55,270 bases of DNA from Chloroflexota bacterium (GTDB lineage: Bacteria; Chloroflexota; Dormibacteria; Dormibacterales; Dormibacteraceae), in NCBI GenBank assembly GCA_005879945.1, contig VBHX01000177.1, forward strand, positions 1 through 55,270, in the 5' to 3' direction. Under the pieces are notes generated by a model. It was given only the letters and a program-made list of their open reading frames with translations. It made no database searches and was not told the origin of the DNA. A program made the position numbers and the translations under genes. Below are positions 26,785 to 34,794 of the stretch, one piece after another. How positions within the stretch are numbered: the stretch's first letter is position 1; the number at the start of each line of letters is the position of its first letter.

Positions 26785-27393
26785 TTGGCTGATTTCCTGG
26801 GCCGCCTCGAACACCTGTTGCATCCCATCGACGGCTGGGGGGAGTTCCGGCGTGGCGCGCGCAAGGCCGCGGTCGTGTTCGTCCTGTACCAGGTGGACGG
26901 GCGTTGGATGGTCCCGTTCGTCCGCCGGCGCGCCGACATGCGAGACCATCCCGGCCAGGTCGCGCTGCCTGGTGGTGGCGTCCAGCAGGGTGAGTCGGCC
27001 TGGTCGGCGGCGCAGCGCGAGGTGGCTGAGGAGATCGGCGTCCCGGTCGGCCGGCTGGTGCCGCTGGGCGCGGGCGACCCGATTTACGCTGCCGTTTCGA
27101 ACTTCTCCGTCGTCCCCTTCGTCGCTTATCTGCCCGACCCGGTGCAGCCATTCGTGCACGACGATCGCGAGCTGGAAGGAGTGCTCCAGATCCCGCTCGA
27201 TCGGCTCCTCGACGACAGCGCCTGGCTCCTTACGGATGATGCCTGGCGTTTTCGTTACCTCGCGCACGAGGAGAGCGTGGTGTGGGGCCTGACCGAGCGG
27301 ATCTTCGCCGGGCTCGCCCCGAGGCTCAGCCTTGCGCTCTCGGAATCGCACGCCGAAGGTCAAAGGCCGGATCCGCCAGCTGCTGCGGGCTGA
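26785..27393 (+). CDS. Nudix hydrolase, CoA/NADH pyrophosphatase-like
   Basis: 202 aa. The Nudix box is GGGVQQGESAWSAAQREVAEEIGV, matching GX5EX7REUXEEXGU. The preceding VPFVRRRADMRDHPGQVALPGG resembles the CoA-pyrophosphatase (NudL/YeaB) subgroup, where LRxHxGQVxFPGG is typical. Start is TTG at 26785 with no strong Shine-Dalgarno. The C-terminal 20 residues overlap the convergent flavoprotein gene by 68 bases. Expected role: hydrolysis of CoA or oxidised CoA derivatives to phosphopantetheine, plausible in a genome rich in acyl-CoA enzymes. Confidence 0.88.
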   Translation: MADFLGRLEHLLHPIDGWGEFRRGARKAAVVFVLYQVDGRWMVPFVRRRADMRDHPGQVALPGGGVQQGESAWSAAQREVAEEIGVPVGRLVPLGAGDPIYAAVSNFSVVPFVAYLPDPVQPFVHDDRELEGVLQIPLDRLLDDSAWLLTDDAWRFRYLAHEESVVWGLTERIFAGLAPRLSLALSESHAEGQRPDPPAAAG

Positions 27394-28444
27394 TCTGCGC
27401 GCGCGCCTCCATCGCATGTCGGGCGCGTGAAACCGTGTGACGGTCGTTGACTCCCACGACCCCGATCAGCCGGCCCTCACGCAGGTAGAAGACACTGAAC
27501 GGCGGCTGCCCGAAGGTGGCGCGCGTAATCGTCGCGTCCCACGCGAGCCCCGCGCCCGCGTACTGAAGGTTGAGCTCGTACTGGTCCGACCAGAACCAGG
27601 GCGCCTCCGCAAACGGATCGCCGCGCCCCGCCATCGCCTGCCCGACCGCGAACCCCTGCCGCTGAGCGGTCTGGAAGTGCTCGACCCGGATACGGGCCTC
27701 GAACAGAGGGCTCCAGAACCTCGTGACGTCCCCGGCGGCATAGACGCCGGGAACCGACGTGCGTCCTTGCTCGTCGACCTGGATTCCGTCATCTATTGCG
27801 ATGCCGGCCGCGGCCGCGAGCTCCACACGAGGCACTGAGCCAATACCCACCACCACGGAGCGTCCGAGGTCCTTCGGCGGTGAGGTTTCCAGGCGTAGAT
27901 CGACTCCGTGCCGGCGGTGAACATCGGCCAGGTAGTTACCAAGCTCCTCGCCCAGCACCCGCTGCATCGGCTGTGGCAGCACCTCGAACACCCTGACCAC
28001 GGATCCGCGCTGCCGCGCGGCGGCCGCAACCTCGCAACCGATGAACCCGGCGCCGACGACGTCGAGCTGCGCACCGCTCTCCAGGATGGCGCGGAGCTGG
28101 AGCGCGTCAGACAGCACGCGCAGGTAGACCGCGTCGTCGAATCCCGCGAGCCTGCGGGCCGACGATCCGGTGGCGATGCAGAGCAGATCCCAGCCGACGG
28201 TGTCGCCGCTTTCGAGGACGATCTTGTGCTGCTCGAGATCCAGCTCGGTCACCCACCTTCCCAGCAGCAGCTCGACGCCAAGCTCGCGGTACTGCGCGGC
28301 AGGACGCAAACCGAGGCGCTCGCGCGCAACGGTTCCGAGCAGAAAGCCTTTGGACAGGTGGGGCCGCTCATAGGGCATCTCGGGCTCGCCGCAGACGACG
28401 ACAACCTCGCCTTGAAAGCCGGCATCACCCAAGCCCGCTGCCAC
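27326..28444 (-). CDS. FAD/NAD-binding ferredoxin/rubredoxin reductase-like protein
   Basis: At least 372 aa. ERPHLSKGFLLG, CIATGSSARRL, LDVVGAGFIGCEVAAAA (NAD site) and VPGVYAAGDVTRF match the FAD-dependent ferredoxin/rubredoxin reductase family. The canonical GTG at 28444 lies downstream of the first FAD motif: the same frame upstream reads SKAVIVGGGPAGDA, which is the expected N-terminus. No ATG, GTG or TTG exists there; the nearest near-cognate choices are a GTC and a CTG (28514-28516) inside ccmD. It sits at the end of the ccm operon, so it may supply electrons for thiol or haem handling, but this is inference. Confidence 0.85.
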   Translation of the reverse strand: MAAGLGDAGFQGEVVVVCGEPEMPYERPHLSKGFLLGTVARERLGLRPAAQYRELGVELLLGRWVTELDLEQHKIVLESGDTVGWDLLCIATGSSARRLAGFDDAVYLRVLSDALQLRAILESGAQLDVVGAGFIGCEVAAAARQRGSVVRVFEVLPQPMQRVLGEELGNYLADVHRRHGVDLRLETSPPKDLGRSVVVGIGSVPRVELAAAAGIAIDDGIQVDEQGRTSVPGVYAAGDVTRFWSPLFEARIRVEHFQTAQRQGFAVGQAMAGRGDPFAEAPWFWSDQYELNLQYAGAGLAWDATITRATFGQPPFSVFYLREGRLIGVVGVNDRHTVSRARHAMEARAQISPQQLADPAFDLRRAIPRAQG

Positions 28445-28473
28445 TGCATCTCCGGCGGGTCCGCCGCCGACGA

Positions 28474-28575
28474 TTACTGCTTTCGAGACAGCTCGCGAAG
28501 GCGGCGCAGCGACCAGACGAGGTATCCGCCAAGGACGGCGACCGCGAAAGCGTAGGCGCTGATCAGATAGATCAC
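28474..28575 (-). CDS. ccmD: CcmD-like small membrane protein
   Basis: 33 aa read from GTG overlapping the ccmC stop (GTGA). A single membrane helix (ISAYAFAVAVLGGYLVWSL) is followed by a basic tail RRLRELSRKQ. Size, topology and position after ccmC fit CcmD, which helps release holo-CcmE from the CcmABC complex. Too short to be found by length alone, but the helix and overlap make it convincing. Confidence 0.75.
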   Translation of the reverse strand: MIYLISAYAFAVAVLGGYLVWSLRRLRELSRKQ

Positions 28576-29264
28576 CGCGCGTCCCCCGCCCTGGTCTGCG
28601 CGACGATCGGCGCCACCACCTTTTCAGCGGCCTGGTCGGTGAGAAACTCGATGCGGTACCTGATCGCGATCATCACGGCCGCGAGAACCAGTGTGCACGC
28701 CATCGTGATGAGGAATGCAACCAGCATCCGCGGAGGCAGGGCGTCGTTGAGCACGACCGGACCTGGGTGCTGAGTCCGCCACCACGTGACGCTGAAATGC
28801 ACCACCGGAACATCGATGAAGCCGAAGATGCCCACGACCGCGGCGAAGCGGGCGGACTGGCGGCCGGGCTCGGCGAGGCGGCGCACCATCAAGTAGCCGG
28901 CGTAGATGATCCAGAGCACCAGCGTCGAGGTAAGCCGGGCGTCCCAGGTCCAGAACGTGCCCCAGATCGGCTTCGCCCAGATCATCCCCATGACCAGAGT
29001 CACAGTCGTGAAGACGAGCCCGACCAGGGCTGCCGCGCGCGCGAGCCGGTCCGCGGCGGCGTTCTCCTTCCACAGGTAGACGACGCCCCCGATGAGCACC
29101 ACCGCGAAGCAGCCGTAGGCCGCGATGGCCGCGCTGACGTGCAGGTAAAAGATCCGCTGCACGGGGCCCTGCAGGGCGTCGGTCGGCGCAAACAGGAAGA
29201 TGAAGCCTCCCGCGATGAGCATCAGCGCTACCGACGCGGCCGAACCCTGTTCGTGCCTAGTCAT
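28572..29264 (-). CDS. ccmC: haem exporter/handling protein CcmC
   Basis: 230 aa with six membrane segments. The Trp-rich WWD motif is WGTFWTWDARLTS, flanked by conserved His in QRIFYLHVSAA and VPVVHFSVTWWR. The ATG at 29264 overlaps the ccmB stop; the open frame upstream is not used. CcmC presents haem on the outer side of the membrane and attaches it to CcmE with the CcmAB ATPase. Confidence 0.93.
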   Translation of the reverse strand: MTRHEQGSAASVALMLIAGGFIFLFAPTDALQGPVQRIFYLHVSAAIAAYGCFAVVLIGGVVYLWKENAAADRLARAAALVGLVFTTVTLVMGMIWAKPIWGTFWTWDARLTSTLVLWIIYAGYLMVRRLAEPGRQSARFAAVVGIFGFIDVPVVHFSVTWWRTQHPGPVVLNDALPPRMLVAFLITMACTLVLAAVMIAIRYRIEFLTDQAAEKVVAPIVAQTRAGDAR

Positions 29265-29922
29265 CGAGCACGAACCGTGCGGCCAGCGAGGTGAGCACGA
29301 CGAACAGTATGTCCAAGTCGAGGAGAAGGCCATTGGCCGAACCGGTGGCGGTGCCACCGCCGCCCATCGCCGATTGCACGGCCTGGCCGCCGACCACCAC
29401 GAACGGTATCCACAGCGGCAACGTCAGCAGCGGCAGCAGTAGCTCCCGCGCGCGCACCTGCGCAACCATGGCCGCGAACAGGCACCCGAGCACCGCCATG
29501 CCAACAGTCGCGAGGAGGACCGCGGAGACCTCATCAAACGTCAGCGGCACCGCGAAGAACAGAGCGAGCGCGGGCAGCAGCACCGCCTCACAGATGACGA
29601 GCAGCAGGCCCGCAGCCAACGCTTTGCCCGCGAAGATCGCCGCGGGCATGGCGGGTGTCATCAACATCGCCTCGAGCGAGGCCTGCTCGCGCTCGGCCGC
29701 AAACGCTCGGCCGAAGGCGACGAGGCCCGCGAACACCAACGCCATCCACAAGACGCCAGGCGCGATCGCAGGCGCGTTGCGCGAGTCGAACTGGAACCCG
29801 AAGTTCGCGATGACCAGCGCAAGCACGACGAACTGAGCGAGGGCCGGCACGATCTCGCGTGTCCTCCACTCGGAGGCGAGGTCCTTGCGCGCGACAGCCA
29901 GCGCGATGGTTATCGAGCGCAT
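29257..29922 (-). CDS. ccmB: haem ABC exporter permease CcmB
   Basis: 221 aa with six hydrophobic segments. The N-terminus ARKDLASEWRTREIV and the following AFAAEREQASLEAMLMTP are conserved CcmB features, the latter being the coupling helix to CcmA. A Gly-rich stretch (SAMGGGGTATGSANG) separates the last two helices. Three bases after the ccmA stop. It forms the membrane part of the CcmABCD complex that releases haem-loaded CcmE. Confidence 0.92.
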   Translation of the reverse strand: MRSITIALAVARKDLASEWRTREIVPALAQFVVLALVIANFGFQFDSRNAPAIAPGVLWMALVFAGLVAFGRAFAAEREQASLEAMLMTPAMPAAIFAGKALAAGLLLVICEAVLLPALALFFAVPLTFDEVSAVLLATVGMAVLGCLFAAMVAQVRARELLLPLLTLPLWIPFVVVGGQAVQSAMGGGGTATGSANGLLLDLDILFVVLTSLAARFVLDD

Positions 29923-29925
29923 TTA

Positions 29926-30570
29926 CTAGTGGACGACGCGCAGGCGGGTCGGCACGCCAACGACCCTTCCGCGGCGCAGCTCGAGCGTTCGCTTGCACAA
30001 GCGGTTGGCGAGCGCGTGGTCATGGGTCGCGATGATCGCGGTGCGCCCGCGCATGACCTTCATCAGCAGGTCCGGGCCGTCGGAGTCGAGACTAGCGTCA
30101 GGCTCGTCCAGAACCAGCAGCTGGGGCTCGTGCAGTACCGCCCTTCCGATCGCTAGGCGCTGCTGGGCTCCGCGCGAAAGCTTTCCGGCCGGCCGTCGGG
30201 CGATGTCTGCTAGGCCGACCAGGTCGAGAACCTGCGCCACGCGTGCGCGATCGACGCCCTGGAGCGTGCAGAAGAAGGCCAGGTTCTCCGCAGCCGAGAG
30301 GGCGGGGTAGAGCCCCGGAGCGTGTGCGACAAAACCGATGCGCCCGCGAAGGCGCCGCCGCTCGACCATCGCGTCGAGGCCAAAGATCTGGAGCGTGCCC
30401 GAGGTCGGGCGAGCGGCCGTGGCCACGATGCGCAGGAGGGTGGTCTTGCCCGCGCCGTTCTCGCCCAATACCGCCAGGTGCTCACCCGCGTCCACCACCA
30501 GGTCGACGGCATCGAGCGCGACGTCGGCGCCGAAACGCTGGGTCAGCGCGGTACCGACGATCGTGCTCAT
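29926..30570 (-). CDS. ccmA: haem ABC exporter ATP-binding protein CcmA
   Basis: 214 aa ABC ATPase: Walker A LGENGAGKTTLLR, signature LSRGAQQRLAIGRA (LSGGQ replaced by LSRGA), Walker B LLVLDEPDASLD and the switch His in IIATHDHAL. Its ATG overlaps the stop of the 35-codon gene upstream. Energises release of holo-CcmE from CcmC. Confidence 0.93.
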   Translation of the reverse strand: MSTIVGTALTQRFGADVALDAVDLVVDAGEHLAVLGENGAGKTTLLRIVATAARPTSGTLQIFGLDAMVERRRLRGRIGFVAHAPGLYPALSAAENLAFFCTLQGVDRARVAQVLDLVGLADIARRPAGKLSRGAQQRLAIGRAVLHEPQLLVLDEPDASLDSDGPDLLMKVMRGRTAIIATHDHALANRLCKRTLELRRGRVVGVPTRLRVVH

Positions 30571-30674
30571 CCGCGCACGCCGTCCTCAAGGTCGTCCTCG
30601 GGCGTCCGAATCAGCGGCCACAGCACAAAGGGTCCCGCAGCGAAAAGGAGCAGCGTCGCGAAGAGCAGGGTCAT
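30567..30674 (-). CDS. 35-aa single-helix protein in the ccm operon (CcmI N-terminus-like)
   Basis: MTLLFATLLLFAAGPFVLWP begins a membrane helix, followed by LIRTPEDDLEDGVRG. The ATG overlaps the ccmF stop and its stop overlaps the ccmA ATG, both as ATGA, so it is held in the translation chain from both sides. The helix ending in WPL resembles the first helix of CcmI/CycH, whose larger soluble part is missing here. A helper of CcmF, or a remnant of CcmI, are the two likely readings. Confidence 0.62.
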   Translation of the reverse strand: MTLLFATLLLFAAGPFVLWPLIRTPEDDLEDGVRG

Positions 30675-32638
30675 GACGCGCCCACCGTGCTTGGCACCCG
30701 AACCACCGCGGGCGCGACAGCGAAGCGCCGCTCGCGGGCGTTGCCGAGCAGCACGCCGAGGATGATGACCGCGCCGCCCGACCAGATCCAGGTCACCAGC
30801 GGGTTGACGAAGATCCTGAACGAAGCCGAGCCATCGCCGTTCGTGCCGGCGAGCACCACATAGACGTCTGCGATTGGGCTGCTGCTGATCGCGACATGCG
30901 TGAGCGACTGCCCGCCGAGGCTCGCGTACGTGGCACGGGCCGGCTGCAGGGTCCGGTCGCCCAGCTGCATCGCAGCGACCAGCTCGGAATGATCCGAGAG
31001 CTGCCGCACCTGCGACCCGGTGTAGGTGAGGCTGTAGCCGGCCACAGAAACCTGCTGACCAGGCTGGAGCGTGACGTCCTTCTCCTGCTGCCAGAAATGC
31101 GACCCCGCCAGGCCCAGTACGACGACCGCGAGACCAAGGTGGGCCAGGTACGCGCCGTAGCGGCGCCGCTTCCTGGACACGAGCGCCACCGCACGCGCCC
31201 AGCCCGCGCCGGCGCGCCGCCATCTCATCGCCGCGCGGAAGTACTCGTAAAGGACGGTGCCGGCCACGGCGGCCCCCAGGGGGATGCCCAGCAGCGCGGG
31301 GAGCGAACGCACGCCGGATGCAAACAGCACCGCGACGATCAGCGCGAATGCGCCCGCCGGCCATCGAAGCGCGCGAACGAGAGGCGCGCCGGCATGCCGC
31401 CAGGGCACGAGCGGGCCCGCGGCCATGAGCACGAGGATGGCCGCGAACAGCGGACCGGCGGCACGCTCGTAGTAAGCGGCGCCGACGACCCGCTCCTGGC
31501 CGGTCATGCCGGAGACCAGCGGCAGGATCGTTCCCCACAGCACCACCGCGACGACGCCGATGAGGAGGAGGTTCTGCAGCGCAAAGGCGCCCTCGCGTGA
31601 GACCGCGGGCGCCGGCTCGCCGCGCGTCTTAAGCGTCCCGCCGCGGATTGCGAGCAAGCCGACCGAGAAGACAAGACAGGCACCCAGGAATCCGAAGAAC
31701 CATGGCCCGATCGAGCTGACCGCGAACGTGTGCACCGAAGGCACGATCCCGCTGCGCACGATGAACGTGCCGAAGACGACCAACAGGAAGGCAAGGATGA
31801 CGAGTCCGAAGTTCCATCCGCGCAGCCGGCCGCGGCGTTCCTGCACCTGTGACGAATGGAGGTATGCGGTCGTCGCGAGCCAGGGCATCAGGGCGACGTT
31901 CTCGACCGGGTCCCAGCCCCAGTAACCGCCCCAGCCAAGCACGTGGTAGGCCCACCACATGCCCAGCAGAAGACCTGTGCTCTGCAGGCCCCAGGCCAGC
32001 AGCGCGAAGCGACGCGTGTGCGCGATCCAGGCGGCGTCGGACCGGCCCGCGAGCAGCGCGGCGGCCGCGAAACTGAACGGAATCGCGAAGGATGCGAAGC
32101 CGGCCAGGATGACCGGCGGATGGATGAGCATGCCGCCGTCGCGCAGGACGGGGTTGAGGCCGAGACCGTCCGGCGGTGTGATCTGCAGCACATCGAACGG
32201 GCTCGCCACGAGCACGAGTACGACAAGGAAGAAGCTGAGAATCGCGGCCATGATCCCGGCGGCGTACGCGGCGACCCTGAGCCCGAGGGTTGCGCTGGCC
32301 ACCAATGCGACGCTCCCGAGGAGGCCAAGGATCAGCGCCCAGTAAAGGAGCGAACCCTCCTGCCCCCCGTAGAATGCCGCGGCCACCAGGGCGATCGGCG
32401 TCGAGAGATCGCTGTGCTCGGTGACGTATGCGAGCGAGAAGTCATGGGTGAGCAGCGCTGTCTCGAGCACGACCGACGCGATGACGAGCATCGCCGCGGT
32501 CGCGTAGAAAGCGCGGCGGCCGACCTGCACCATGACGACGTTTTGCGACCAACCGGCCCAGAACGAGAGCATCGCCGAAAACAACCCCATGACCAGGCCG
32601 GCGAGCAGGGCACCCGCGCCCAGATACGCGAGGATCAC
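30671..32638 (-). CDS. ccmF: cytochrome c haem lyase subunit CcmF
   Basis: About 655 aa, many membrane segments. The WWD domain is WGGYWGWDPVENVALMPWLA with flanking His (HSSQVQERRG upstream of helix 8; SVHTFAVSSIGPW downstream). The C-terminal soluble domain begins near KDVTLQPGQQVSVAGYSL. Two starts are possible: GTG at 32674 inside ccmE's haem motif, and GTG at 32638, which overlaps the ccmE stop as GTGA; I prefer the latter. CcmF receives haem from CcmE and joins it to apocytochrome CXXCH cysteines. Confidence 0.93.
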   Translation of the reverse strand: MILAYLGAGALLAGLVMGLFSAMLSFWAGWSQNVVMVQVGRRAFYATAAMLVIASVVLETALLTHDFSLAYVTEHSDLSTPIALVAAAFYGGQEGSLLYWALILGLLGSVALVASATLGLRVAAYAAGIMAAILSFFLVVLVLVASPFDVLQITPPDGLGLNPVLRDGGMLIHPPVILAGFASFAIPFSFAAAALLAGRSDAAWIAHTRRFALLAWGLQSTGLLLGMWWAYHVLGWGGYWGWDPVENVALMPWLATTAYLHSSQVQERRGRLRGWNFGLVILAFLLVVFGTFIVRSGIVPSVHTFAVSSIGPWFFGFLGACLVFSVGLLAIRGGTLKTRGEPAPAVSREGAFALQNLLLIGVVAVVLWGTILPLVSGMTGQERVVGAAYYERAAGPLFAAILVLMAAGPLVPWRHAGAPLVRALRWPAGAFALIVAVLFASGVRSLPALLGIPLGAAVAGTVLYEYFRAAMRWRRAGAGWARAVALVSRKRRRYGAYLAHLGLAVVVLGLAGSHFWQQEKDVTLQPGQQVSVAGYSLTYTGSQVRQLSDHSELVAAMQLGDRTLQPARATYASLGGQSLTHVAISSSPIADVYVVLAGTNGDGSASFRIFVNPLVTWIWSGGAVIILGVLLGNARERRFAVAPAVVRVPSTVGAS

Positions 32639-33012
32639 TGGGTGTACGGAGTGGTCGAGAATCGCGATGGGCACTTCGCGAGCAGCATTCGCGCGTGGAA
32701 AACGTTGTCGGCGCCCAGCCTGCCTTCAGCCACCACCGTGATACCAGGCCGGAAAATGTCCGGCAGCGCGCCTTTGTAGTCGACCAGCACCGAGGACGTG
32801 CCATCCTTCTCAGTGAACTGGACCTGCAGGCCTCCATCGCTGCGCCGCACATCGTTCTGCACCACTCCAGCGACGCGAACGTCACCGGCCCCGGGCTGCT
32901 GCGAGCGCAGCTCTGACACCGTGAGGTAGTACTCGGAAGCGCCCGAGGCCGAATAGACCAGGTAGCCAACGCAGCCGCAGACGACCAGCATCACGATGCC
33001 CCAGCGGATCAT
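32635..33012 (-). CDS. ccmE: haem chaperone CcmE, Cys-type variant
   Basis: 125 aa: one N-terminal anchor helix (IVMLVVCGCVGYLVYSASGA), then an OB-fold (DVRVAGVVQNDVRR...LQVQFTEKDG...ALPDIFRPGITVVAEGRLG). The haem-binding site of classical CcmE is HxxxY. Here the position reads LLAKCPSRF, with Cys114 and Phe118, matching the C-type (CxxxY) CcmE of archaea and some deltaproteobacteria but with Tyr replaced by Phe. Its ATG overlaps the ccmG-like stop. Carries haem from CcmC to CcmF on the outer face of the membrane. Confidence 0.92.
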   Translation of the reverse strand: MIRWGIVMLVVCGCVGYLVYSASGASEYYLTVSELRSQQPGAGDVRVAGVVQNDVRRSDGGLQVQFTEKDGTSSVLVDYKGALPDIFRPGITVVAEGRLGADNVFHARMLLAKCPSRFSTTPYTQ

Positions 33013-33524
33013 GCGGCGATCAGCGTCAAGTAGTGATCCAGCGTCGACGTGTCCAGCGGTCCCGCAAATGACGCGGTGACCACTCCGTTGGCGTCGATGA
33101 AGATCGTCACCGGCGGCCCGACGACGCCGTAATCCTGGTACTTGCCTGACACGATCGGCCCCACCGGATATGTGTGCGCGTGCTGCTGCTCAAAGGACCG
33201 AACCCCGGAACTCGTGTCCTGCACGGCAGCGCCGACAAAGACAACGTTGGGATGCGCCGCCGCCGCGCCGGTCAGGACCGGTTGCTCCTGGACGCAAGGT
33301 CCGCACCACGACGCCCAGAAGTTGACGACCACTGGTTTTCCGCGCAGCTGCTGGATCCCGACCTTCTGCCCGTCGGGCTGCTGAATGGCCAGGTCCGGGG
33401 CTGTGTGCCCCAGGAGGTGCGGGCTGTTCATGGCCGCGTGCTGAAGGCCCCAGGCCAGCGAAACCATCAGGACTGCGCCGAGGACGATCGCGCCGGCCGA
33501 GATGAAACCGGACCTGAGGTTCAA
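33009..33524 (-). CDS. ccmG: TlpA/CcmG-like thiol-disulfide oxidoreductase
   Basis: 171 aa: N-terminal anchor (ISAGAIVLGAVLMVSLAWG), then a thioredoxin fold with NFWASWCGPCVQEQP (Cys74, Cys77) and the cis-Pro loop VVGPPVTIFID. The IQQPDGQKVGIQQLRGK stretch is typical of ResA/TlpA. First gene of the ccm operon. It would keep apocytochrome CXXCH cysteines reduced for haem attachment. No CcmH (LRCxxC) gene is found in the operon, so this protein may do the whole reductive step. Confidence 0.9.
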   Translation of the reverse strand: MNLRSGFISAGAIVLGAVLMVSLAWGLQHAAMNSPHLLGHTAPDLAIQQPDGQKVGIQQLRGKPVVVNFWASWCGPCVQEQPVLTGAAAAHPNVVFVGAAVQDTSSGVRSFEQQHAHTYPVGPIVSGKYQDYGVVGPPVTIFIDANGVVTASFAGPLDTSTLDHYLTLIAA

Positions 33525-33552: not shown

Positions 33553-34794
33553 CTAGTCGGAAAGGGAGTTTGCGGCCGAAATCCGGCTGTAAAGATGGCC
33601 GCTCGGCTTGATCGTCCGCTCCAGGGTCTTGCGGTCCACCTCTATCAGTCCGAAGCGGATGCCGTACCCGCGGCCCCACTCGAAGTTGTCCGTGTTCGTC
33701 CAGTGGAAATAGCCGCGCACGTCCACGCCGTCGCCGATGGCGAGCAGAACGTTGGCGAGGGTCTCGGTGATGTAGCTGCGGCGCCACTCGTCGTCGGTCG
33801 TGGCCAGACCGCTCTCGGTGATGTACACGGGTTTGCCCATCGAACGCACCTCGTTCAGCACGATGCGCATCCAGGTTGGGTCGGTGCTGAGCCCCATGTC
33901 GGTCACGCGACGGCCCGGGACGTTGAAGCGCCGGATGAACTGGTCCATCGGCCGCGCCGCGTCGAATGCGCACATCTGGCCCCAGTAGTGGGCGATGCCG
34001 ATGTAGTCGCTCGTCGACTCCACGATCCTGCGCAGGTGCCCGGGTGCGATTGGCCAGCGGTCGAGCGCCATCTGCGAGGTTCCCGCCGCCCACCGATCGC
34101 GCCGCCTGCCGGACGCGGGCAGGAAAAGCAGCTTGTGGTGCGACAGGCCAACCTGCGCGTCTGGCCATCTGCGCTTGATCGCCAGGTAGGCGAGCTCGTG
34201 CGCCTTGCGCATGTTGCTGGTGACGCGATAAAGGCCGGCGATGTCTCCACGCCGGCCGGGAGGGAACTCGCCAGTGACCCAGCCGTTGGCTCCATAGATG
34301 CCCGGTTCGTTGATGGTGCACCAAAGCGTGACGAGGTCGCCGAGCTCGTCGGCCACACGATGCACGAAAGGTAGAAATGCGTGCGCGGCGCCACGCGCTG
34401 CCCATCCGCCCTTCCGCGCAAACCAGATCGGGTTCGAGAAGTGATGGAGGGTGACCATCGGCTCGAGGCCCTGCTCGCGAAGATCGGCGAGGACGTCGCG
34501 GTAGTGGCGGATCTGGCGTACGTCGAACTCGCCCTGCGAGGGTTCGATGCGCGACCACTCAATCGAGAGCCGATGGGCGTTCTGGCTGAGCTCCCGGAGG
34601 AGGGCAAAATCTTCGCGGTAGCGGTGATAGTGGTCGTTGGCCATCCCTGACGTGTCGCCGTTGGCGATCCGGCCTGGCTGCTGCTCGAACTCCCACCAAT
34701 CGCTGTTGCGGTTGTCGCCCTCGACCTGGTGGGCGGCGCTCGATGTCCCCCAAAGAAAGCCATCGGGGAATCGCGGAGCGCGCGCCTCGCTCAC
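33553..34794 (-). CDS. glycoside hydrolase family 1 beta-glycosidase
   Basis: 413 aa with the GH1 barrel: FPDGFLWGTSSAAHQVEGDN at the start, acid/base Glu163 in CTINEP and nucleophile Glu327 in YITESG (usual form ITENG). RLSIEWSRIEP and the aglycone-site Trp in YFHWTNTDNFEWGRGYGIRFGL are also present. No signal peptide, so intracellular cleavage of short beta-glucosides or related sugars is likely. Its ATG overlaps the stop of the phosphatase gene upstream. Slightly shorter than the usual 440-480 aa. Confidence 0.92.
   Translation of the reverse strand: MSEARAPRFPDGFLWGTSSAAHQVEGDNRNSDWWEFEQQPGRIANGDTSGMANDHYHRYREDFALLRELSQNAHRLSIEWSRIEPSQGEFDVRQIRHYRDVLADLREQGLEPMVTLHHFSNPIWFARKGGWAARGAAHAFLPFVHRVADELGDLVTLWCTINEPGIYGANGWVTGEFPPGRRGDIAGLYRVTSNMRKAHELAYLAIKRRWPDAQVGLSHHKLLFLPASGRRRDRWAAGTSQMALDRWPIAPGHLRRIVESTSDYIGIAHYWGQMCAFDAARPMDQFIRRFNVPGRRVTDMGLSTDPTWMRIVLNEVRSMGKPVYITESGLATTDDEWRRSYITETLANVLLAIGDGVDVRGYFHWTNTDNFEWGRGYGIRFGLIEVDRKTLERTIKPSGHLYSRISAANSLSD

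What the first reader, a model, noticed from the sequence alone, without database searches (positions are those of the whole stretch)
28474..33524. Compact cytochrome c maturation operon with a Cys-type CcmE and no CcmH
Order is ccmG, ccmE, ccmF, 35-aa ORF, ccmA, ccmB, ccmC, ccmD, reductase. CcmE carries LLAKCPSRF, the C-type (CxxxY) rather than HxxxY haem site, with Tyr changed to Phe. C-type CcmE systems are known to lack CcmH in several lineages. The Phe variant is unusual, and the Tyr normally contacts haem.
Basis: partly seen in the sequence, partly recalled or inferred. Interest (0 to 1): 0.55.

Follow-up and report, generated by a model that had tools for sequence, protein, structure and literature searches.

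The report
Cytochrome assembly operon missing CcmH
This is a known variant of the bacterial machinery that attaches haem to cytochrome c; its unusual features turn out to be normal for its lineage, and the one new detail is that a lost pair of helper genes has left a tiny, still conserved, membrane-helix gene behind.

Summary
The operon is real: ccmG-ccmE-ccmF-microORF-ccmA-ccmB-ccmC-ccmD, with a downstream FAD reductase, all on the minus strand. CcmE carries CPSRF (Cys114, Phe118). No CcmH passes the Pfam cut-off in the genome. A 2011 review (PMC3601427) already describes Cys-type CcmE in Chloroflexi, Phe in 4 examples, and says that missing CcmH is not characteristic of the type. Here Phe is fixed in the window's family (39 of 39 CcmE). 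CxxxF is the commonest of five motif types read in 148 of 207 phylum genomes with CcmE, and 50 of 66 CxxxF genomes do have CcmH. Within the family CcmH was lost once: four CcmH-bearing genomes form the sister clade of the CcmH-less ones on a CcmF tree. In those four, ccmH and a 72-91 aa CcmI-like gene sit between ccmF and ccmA. It matches the CcmI membrane helix by profile comparison and is under purifying selection (dN/dS about 0.21). So this is an ordinary lineage-specific System I* operon with a new detail, a "micro-CcmI".

The parts
33009..33524 (-). ccmG-like membrane-anchored thioredoxin (WCGPC), TTG start
   Evidence: PF08534 E 3.6e-16, ResA/DsbE families; present in the ccm locus in 35 of 35 CcmH-less family loci
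32635..33012 (-). ccmE, haem chaperone, 125 aa, motif C114-P-S-R-F118 (CxxxF)
   Evidence: PF03100 E 5.5e-24; motif aligned
30671..32674 (-). ccmF, cytochrome c haem ligase, 667 aa, with WGGYWGWDPVEN (WWD-type) motif
   Evidence: PF16327 E 7.6e-54, PF01578 E 2.8e-33; WWD label recalled
   Evidence: TIGR03142 CcmI profile positions 4-27, E 0.074; family alignment vs CcmI of relatives hhalign prob 96.5-96.9; dN/dS 0.21
29926..30570 (-). ccmA, ABC ATPase
   Evidence: TIGR01189 140.8 bits, above cut-off 131.6
29257..29922 (-). ccmB
   Evidence: PF03379 E 8.4e-27
28572..29264 (-). ccmC with WGTFWTWD motif; ATG at 29264 preferred over the GTG at 29357
   Evidence: PF01578 E 1.7e-35, TIGR01191 E 9.1e-45; start from reading the sequence
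28474..28575 (-). ccmD, 33 aa
   Evidence: PF04995 E 2.5e-5 and TIGR03141 E 2.8e-5, both just under the curated cut-offs
27326..28489 (-). FAD/NAD(P) ferredoxin-reductase-like oxidoreductase downstream of the operon
   Evidence: PF07992 E 5.7e-50, PF14759 E 4.4e-26

Best explanation
This is a complete, vertically inherited System I* (Cys-type CcmE) cytochrome c maturation operon of a Dormibacterota/Chloroflexota soil lineage. CcmABCD would load haem on Cys114 of CcmE, and CcmE would hand it to CcmF. CcmG would keep the CXXCH thiols reduced, and CcmF alone would do the ligation for the one detected monohaem cytochrome (inferred from homology and literature). Phe118 is an old lineage trait: it predates the loss of CcmH, since CcmH-bearing relatives share it. 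At the base of the CcmH-less clade, ccmH and the soluble part of a CcmI-like protein were lost in place between ccmF and ccmA. A single-helix remnant (micro-CcmI) stayed under purifying selection, probably as a small helix packed against CcmF. Shown: gene content, motif distribution, synteny, the single loss on the tree, and selection on the micro ORF. Inferred: every biochemical step and the partner of the micro-protein.
For: Operon and motif. Phe in 39 of 39 family CcmE (38 CPSRF, 1 CPAHF). CcmH above cut-off in 4 of 42 family genomes (G175, G254, G312, G325), located between ccmF and ccmA and followed by a CcmI-like ORF of 72-91 aa; G312's passes the TIGR03142 cut-off (30.1 vs 29.3 bits). 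On the CcmF tree these four are one clade (SH-aLRT 95), sister to 34 CcmH-less rows (98): 1 change. Micro ORF in 32 of 32 CcmH-less loci with a complete ccmF-ccmA junction (39 loci examined, 4 with the long form, 3 cut by contig ends). Its dN/dS is 0.21 over 465 pairs. Variability at codon positions 1/2/3 is 0.147/0.068/0.332, and 0 of 20000 permutations reach the 3-minus-2 difference. hhalign of the micro alignment vs CcmI of other families: prob 96.5; vs the four long ones: 96.9; 0 of 100 column shuffles reach either score; CcmD control prob 0.8 and 0.2. One cytochrome c domain locus in each of 12 of 12 family genomes, with both PF13442 and PF00034.
Against: The window's own micro ORF falls below the TIGR03142 cut-off (13.3 vs 29.3 bits), and two of the three long forms tested also do (G175 no match, G325 18.1 bits); a 25-residue membrane helix is short for homology claims. 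dS is near 0.93, so the ratio is approximate, and pairs are not independent. CcmG also exists in the CcmH-bearing relatives on another contig, so CcmG did not simply replace CcmH. The genome is a MAG, 86.8% complete. The CcmI rows outside the family were recruited with a profile re-estimated once from hits that may include micro rows. No expression or function data.
Confidence: 0.8

Rival explanations
1. The micro ORF is an unrelated small membrane protein, or decaying residue, that happens to sit where ccmH-ccmI was.
For: Single matches to the CcmI profile are weak (E 0.0015 to 0.23 for the five relatives tested and 0.074 for the window). Length and C-terminus vary (27-60 aa).
Against: Family profile vs CcmI profile prob 96.5-96.9, with 0 of 100 shuffles reaching the score; WPL conserved in 32 of 32; coding-type substitution pattern; same position, and the same helix in the four long forms.
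Confidence: 0.12
2. CcmH is present but missed: too diverged for the profile, or on an unassembled contig.
For: G000 is 86.8% complete in 236 contigs; only sub-threshold hits (best E 0.199).
Against: None above cut-off in 38 of 42 family genomes, some at 96-99% completeness. The place where relatives keep ccmH is fully sequenced in 32 loci and holds only the micro ORF. The same profile finds it in 157 of 301 phylum genomes.
Confidence: 0.06
3. The Phe variant is a recent loss of the haem ligand that signals a degenerate or altered CcmE.
For: Tyr is described as the iron ligand in E. coli CcmE (PMC10457321 passages; PMC3601427 passages).
Against: Phe in 15 CxxxF and 5 HxxxF families. All but one of the Phe-bearing rows lie in one 50-row clade of the thinned CcmF tree. 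[quoted passage not shown]
Confidence: 0.07

Closest known systems
System I* of Desulfovibrio and archaea (Cys-type CcmE, no CcmH)
   Same: Cys in place of the haem-binding His, no CcmH, CcmABCEF present; ccmD present as in Desulfovibrio
   Different: Motif CxxxF instead of CxxxY; CcmG present (absent in the Desulfovibrio system according to PMC3601427); a CcmI-derived micro ORF between ccmF and ccmA
Chloroflexi Cys-type CcmE systems noted in FEBS J 2011 (PMC3601427)
   Same: Same phylum, Cys-type; the review's set has Phe in 4 examples and CcmH in about one third
   Different: Here the distribution is counted by family, and CcmH loss is placed on a tree
CcmI (TIGR03142, N-terminal membrane part)
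   Same: First membrane helix, position between ccmF and ccmA, shared with the 72-91 aa CcmI-like protein of CcmH-bearing family members
   Different: Only about 30 aa: no cytoplasmic hairpin, no TPR; below the curated cut-off

Membership tests
System I* (Cys-type CcmE cytochrome c maturation) | Cys replaces the haem-binding His of CcmE | tested here: met
   CPSRF, C114 invariant in the 17-row alignment
System I* (Cys-type CcmE cytochrome c maturation) | CcmA, B, C, E, F present | tested here: met
System I* (Cys-type CcmE cytochrome c maturation) | No CcmH (not required by the 2011 review) | tested here: met
System I* (Cys-type CcmE cytochrome c maturation) | CxxxY with Tyr (majority form, not required by the 2011 review) | tested here: not met
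   Phe118; a known minority variant
System I* (Cys-type CcmE cytochrome c maturation) | Covalent haem binding by the Cys and production of holocytochrome | not testable with these tools
   needs expression
CcmI | Score above the TIGR03142 cut-off | tested here: not met
   13.3 vs 29.3 bits for the window
CcmI | First membrane helix homologous to CcmI | tested here: met
   hhalign prob 96.5-96.9, 0 of 100 shuffles
CcmI | Cytoplasmic loop and TPR domain | tested here: not met
   27-60 aa only

The most novel reading that the evidence does not exclude
The micro-CcmI is a working single-helix subunit of a minimal CcmF ligase. When CcmH was lost, the CcmI-like protein shrank to the one helix that CcmF needs, giving a CcmF-micro-CcmI enzyme that makes cytochrome c without CcmH or the TPR chaperone.
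Probability: 0.4. Interest if true: 0.55.

Novelty: new variant of a known kind. Interest (0 to 1): 0.38.

Why it matters
Why some System I machines work without CcmH and CcmI is an open question in the reviews read here. This lineage shows the step itself: a sister pair of clades with the same CcmE, one with CcmH and a 72-91 aa CcmI, one without CcmH and with only a CcmI helix kept under selection. That suggests which part of CcmI the ligase cannot lose, and gives paired natural operons for a direct test.

Tried and rejected
Rejected: 'Phe is unusual' (fixed in the family and common in the phylum); 'Cys-type implies no CcmH' (84 of 117 C-type entries have CcmH); 'CcmG replaced CcmH' (a CcmG homologue of 130-155 bits is also present, unlinked, in all four CcmH-bearing relatives). 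Considered but left: structure prediction (one-chain folding cannot dock a 35-aa helix on CcmF).

Rows dropped or limited: CcmE motif read for 148 of 207 phylum genomes with CcmE; 59 not read, mostly not fetched. Among those fetched, G066 reads KCASKQ and was not classed, and G037 is cut by a contig end. The first motif pattern missed rows with other residues before the Cys/His and was widened; one mis-parse (G299, HRTSL) was corrected to HDEVY, but the row keeps the wrong name in the tree printed. One search printed CcmH 'False' for G301-G325, which one search had not examined; one search tested them, and G312 and G325 proved positive. In one search the automatic pick for G254 (L078) was the end of CcmH; its CcmI-like ORF was found. 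The CcmE tree has only 111 columns and few strongly supported deep forks. The tree was thinned to 106 of 143 rows and uses FastTree; long branches meet in it. One search counted 7 CcmH changes over the phylum, so CcmH changed more than once elsewhere. PF02683 (CcdA/DsbD) gave no match at E <= 0.001 in G000 and G247, and matches in 10 of 12 genomes, 7 over the cut-off, so the electron donor of CcmG is unresolved.

Full report
What is there. Searches confirm a minus-strand operon: ccmG (33009-33524), ccmE (32635-33012), ccmF (30671-32674), a 35-aa ORF (30567-30674), ccmA (29926-30570), ccmB (29257-29922), ccmC (28572-29264), ccmD (28474-28575), then an FAD oxidoreductase. CcmE ends LLAKCPSRFSTTPYTQ; Cys114 and Phe118 stand at the haem-binding Cys/His and the Tyr positions. 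The closest named relatives (CcmF mostly 72-86% identical) are soil MAGs titled Chloroflexi or Candidatus Dormiibacterota bacterium, so I take the genome to be of that group (inference).

CcmH. PF03918 finds nothing above its cut-off in the genome (G000 86.8% complete). In the family, 4 of 42 genomes have CcmH (G175, G254, G312, G325). In the phylum sample 157 of 301 have it, while 207 of 301 have CcmE.

The CcmE motif. In the family, CcmE was found in 39 of 42 genomes and all 39 carry Phe (38 CPSRF, 1 CPAHF). In the phylum the motif was read in 148 of 207 genomes with CcmE: CxxxF 66 (50 with CcmH), CxxxY 48 (31 with), CxxxL 3 (3), HxxxF 11 (11), HxxxY 21 (21); one genome, G225, counts twice (CxxxL and HxxxY). 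CxxxF occurs in 15 families. In 13 of these every genome read has CcmH; f1 and f38 are mixed. So neither Phe nor Cys predicts the loss of CcmH. Named loci show CPSKF also outside the phylum, in 4 of 4 Solirubrobacter loci and one actinobacterial MAG.

Literature. [quoted passage not shown] Allen et al. 2006 is known to me only by title from reference lists. PMC3884852 (passages) reports that D. vulgaris CcmE binds ferric haem non-covalently through its Cys, so iron ligation without the Tyr is plausible. PMC9084895 (passages) says that archaeal Cys-type systems lack CcmD, H and I. Searches for CcmE+CPSKY, CcmE+Chloroflexi, CcmI+Chloroflexi and Dormibacterota+cytochrome c+heme (open-licence papers only) returned no listing that describes a CcmI remnant; apart from PMC3601427 those hits were seen as listings only.

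The 35-aa ORF. In G175, G312, G254 and G325 the space between ccmF and ccmA holds ccmH followed by a CcmI-like ORF of 72-91 aa. In 32 of 32 CcmH-less family loci with a complete junction it holds only an ORF of 27-60 aa with a helix like AIIVATLLLFLAGPFVLWPL. 39 loci were examined in all: 4 have the long form and 3 are cut by contig ends. dN/dS is 0.21 and the codon-position pattern is that of a coding gene. Profile comparison ties it to CcmI (prob 96.5-96.9; 0 of 100 column shuffles; CcmD controls 0.8 and 0.2), although the window ORF alone does not reach the TIGR03142 cut-off. Elsewhere in the phylum ccmF is commonly followed by ccmH and a longer CcmI-like gene.

One loss in this family. On a CcmF tree of 50 rows (38 family, 12 others) the four CcmH-bearing rows form a clade (95) sister to the 34 CcmH-less rows (98); the minimum is one change. 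A beta-glucosidase-like gene lies upstream of the operon in the window (33553-34794; name recalled from its sequence) and in the four CcmH-bearing loci, so the locus is the same and the loss was in place.

How it works (inferred). Haem goes from CcmABCD to Cys114 of CcmE, then to CcmF. CcmG serves as thiol reductant. The only cytochrome c domain locus that I detected in each of 12 of 12 family genomes (PF13442 and PF00034) is a membrane-anchored monohaem protein in the window's genome (CATCH). A single simple substrate may have made CcmH and the soluble part of CcmI dispensable.

Side result. Within the phylum, HxxxF CcmEs are nearer to CxxxF ones (38.7% mean identity, motif left out) than to HxxxY ones (33.2%). 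The HxxxF genomes in the CcmF tree lie in its mainly Phe-bearing 50-row clade. This suggests that Cys and His were exchanged in nature with Phe as a footprint, although the review says that neither system tolerates the swap. The trees are short or approximate, so this is a lead.

Verdict. Observation confirmed; interpretation partly supported; mostly known. The new part is the single-helix CcmI remnant and the placing of the loss.

Noticed in passing
phylum CcmE set: f5, f13, f25, f31, f44 (e.g. L160, L156, L137, L145, L133): HxxxF CcmEs that resemble CxxxF more than HxxxY ones and sit in the Phe-bearing clade of the CcmF tree: a possible natural Cys-to-His exchange.
   Followed up: partly
L312, L313, L318, L319 (Solirubrobacter), L317: CPSKF CcmE in Actinobacteria; no CcmH found within the fetched loci, and a weak CcmI-like match present.
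   Followed up: no
window 28444-28489: The dinucleotide-binding GGGPAG of the reductase lies upstream of the first ATG/GTG/TTG of its frame (GTG at 28444), so the start is non-canonical or the sequence has an error.
   Followed up: no
L236/L333 5725-6297: Only one cytochrome c domain locus is detected in each of 12 family genomes; in the window's genome it is a monohaem protein with a C-terminal membrane helix and no respiratory gene recognised next to it.
   Followed up: partly
L254, L255, L256, L258: In the CcmH-bearing relatives the CcmG homologue is not in the ccm locus but about 1 kb from a second thioredoxin-fold match on another contig.
   Followed up: partly
families f15, f23, f53, f57 (e.g. 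L219-L228): CPSKY CcmE with low PF03100 scores and no CcmH in the genomes read: another CcmH-less group in the phylum.
   Followed up: no
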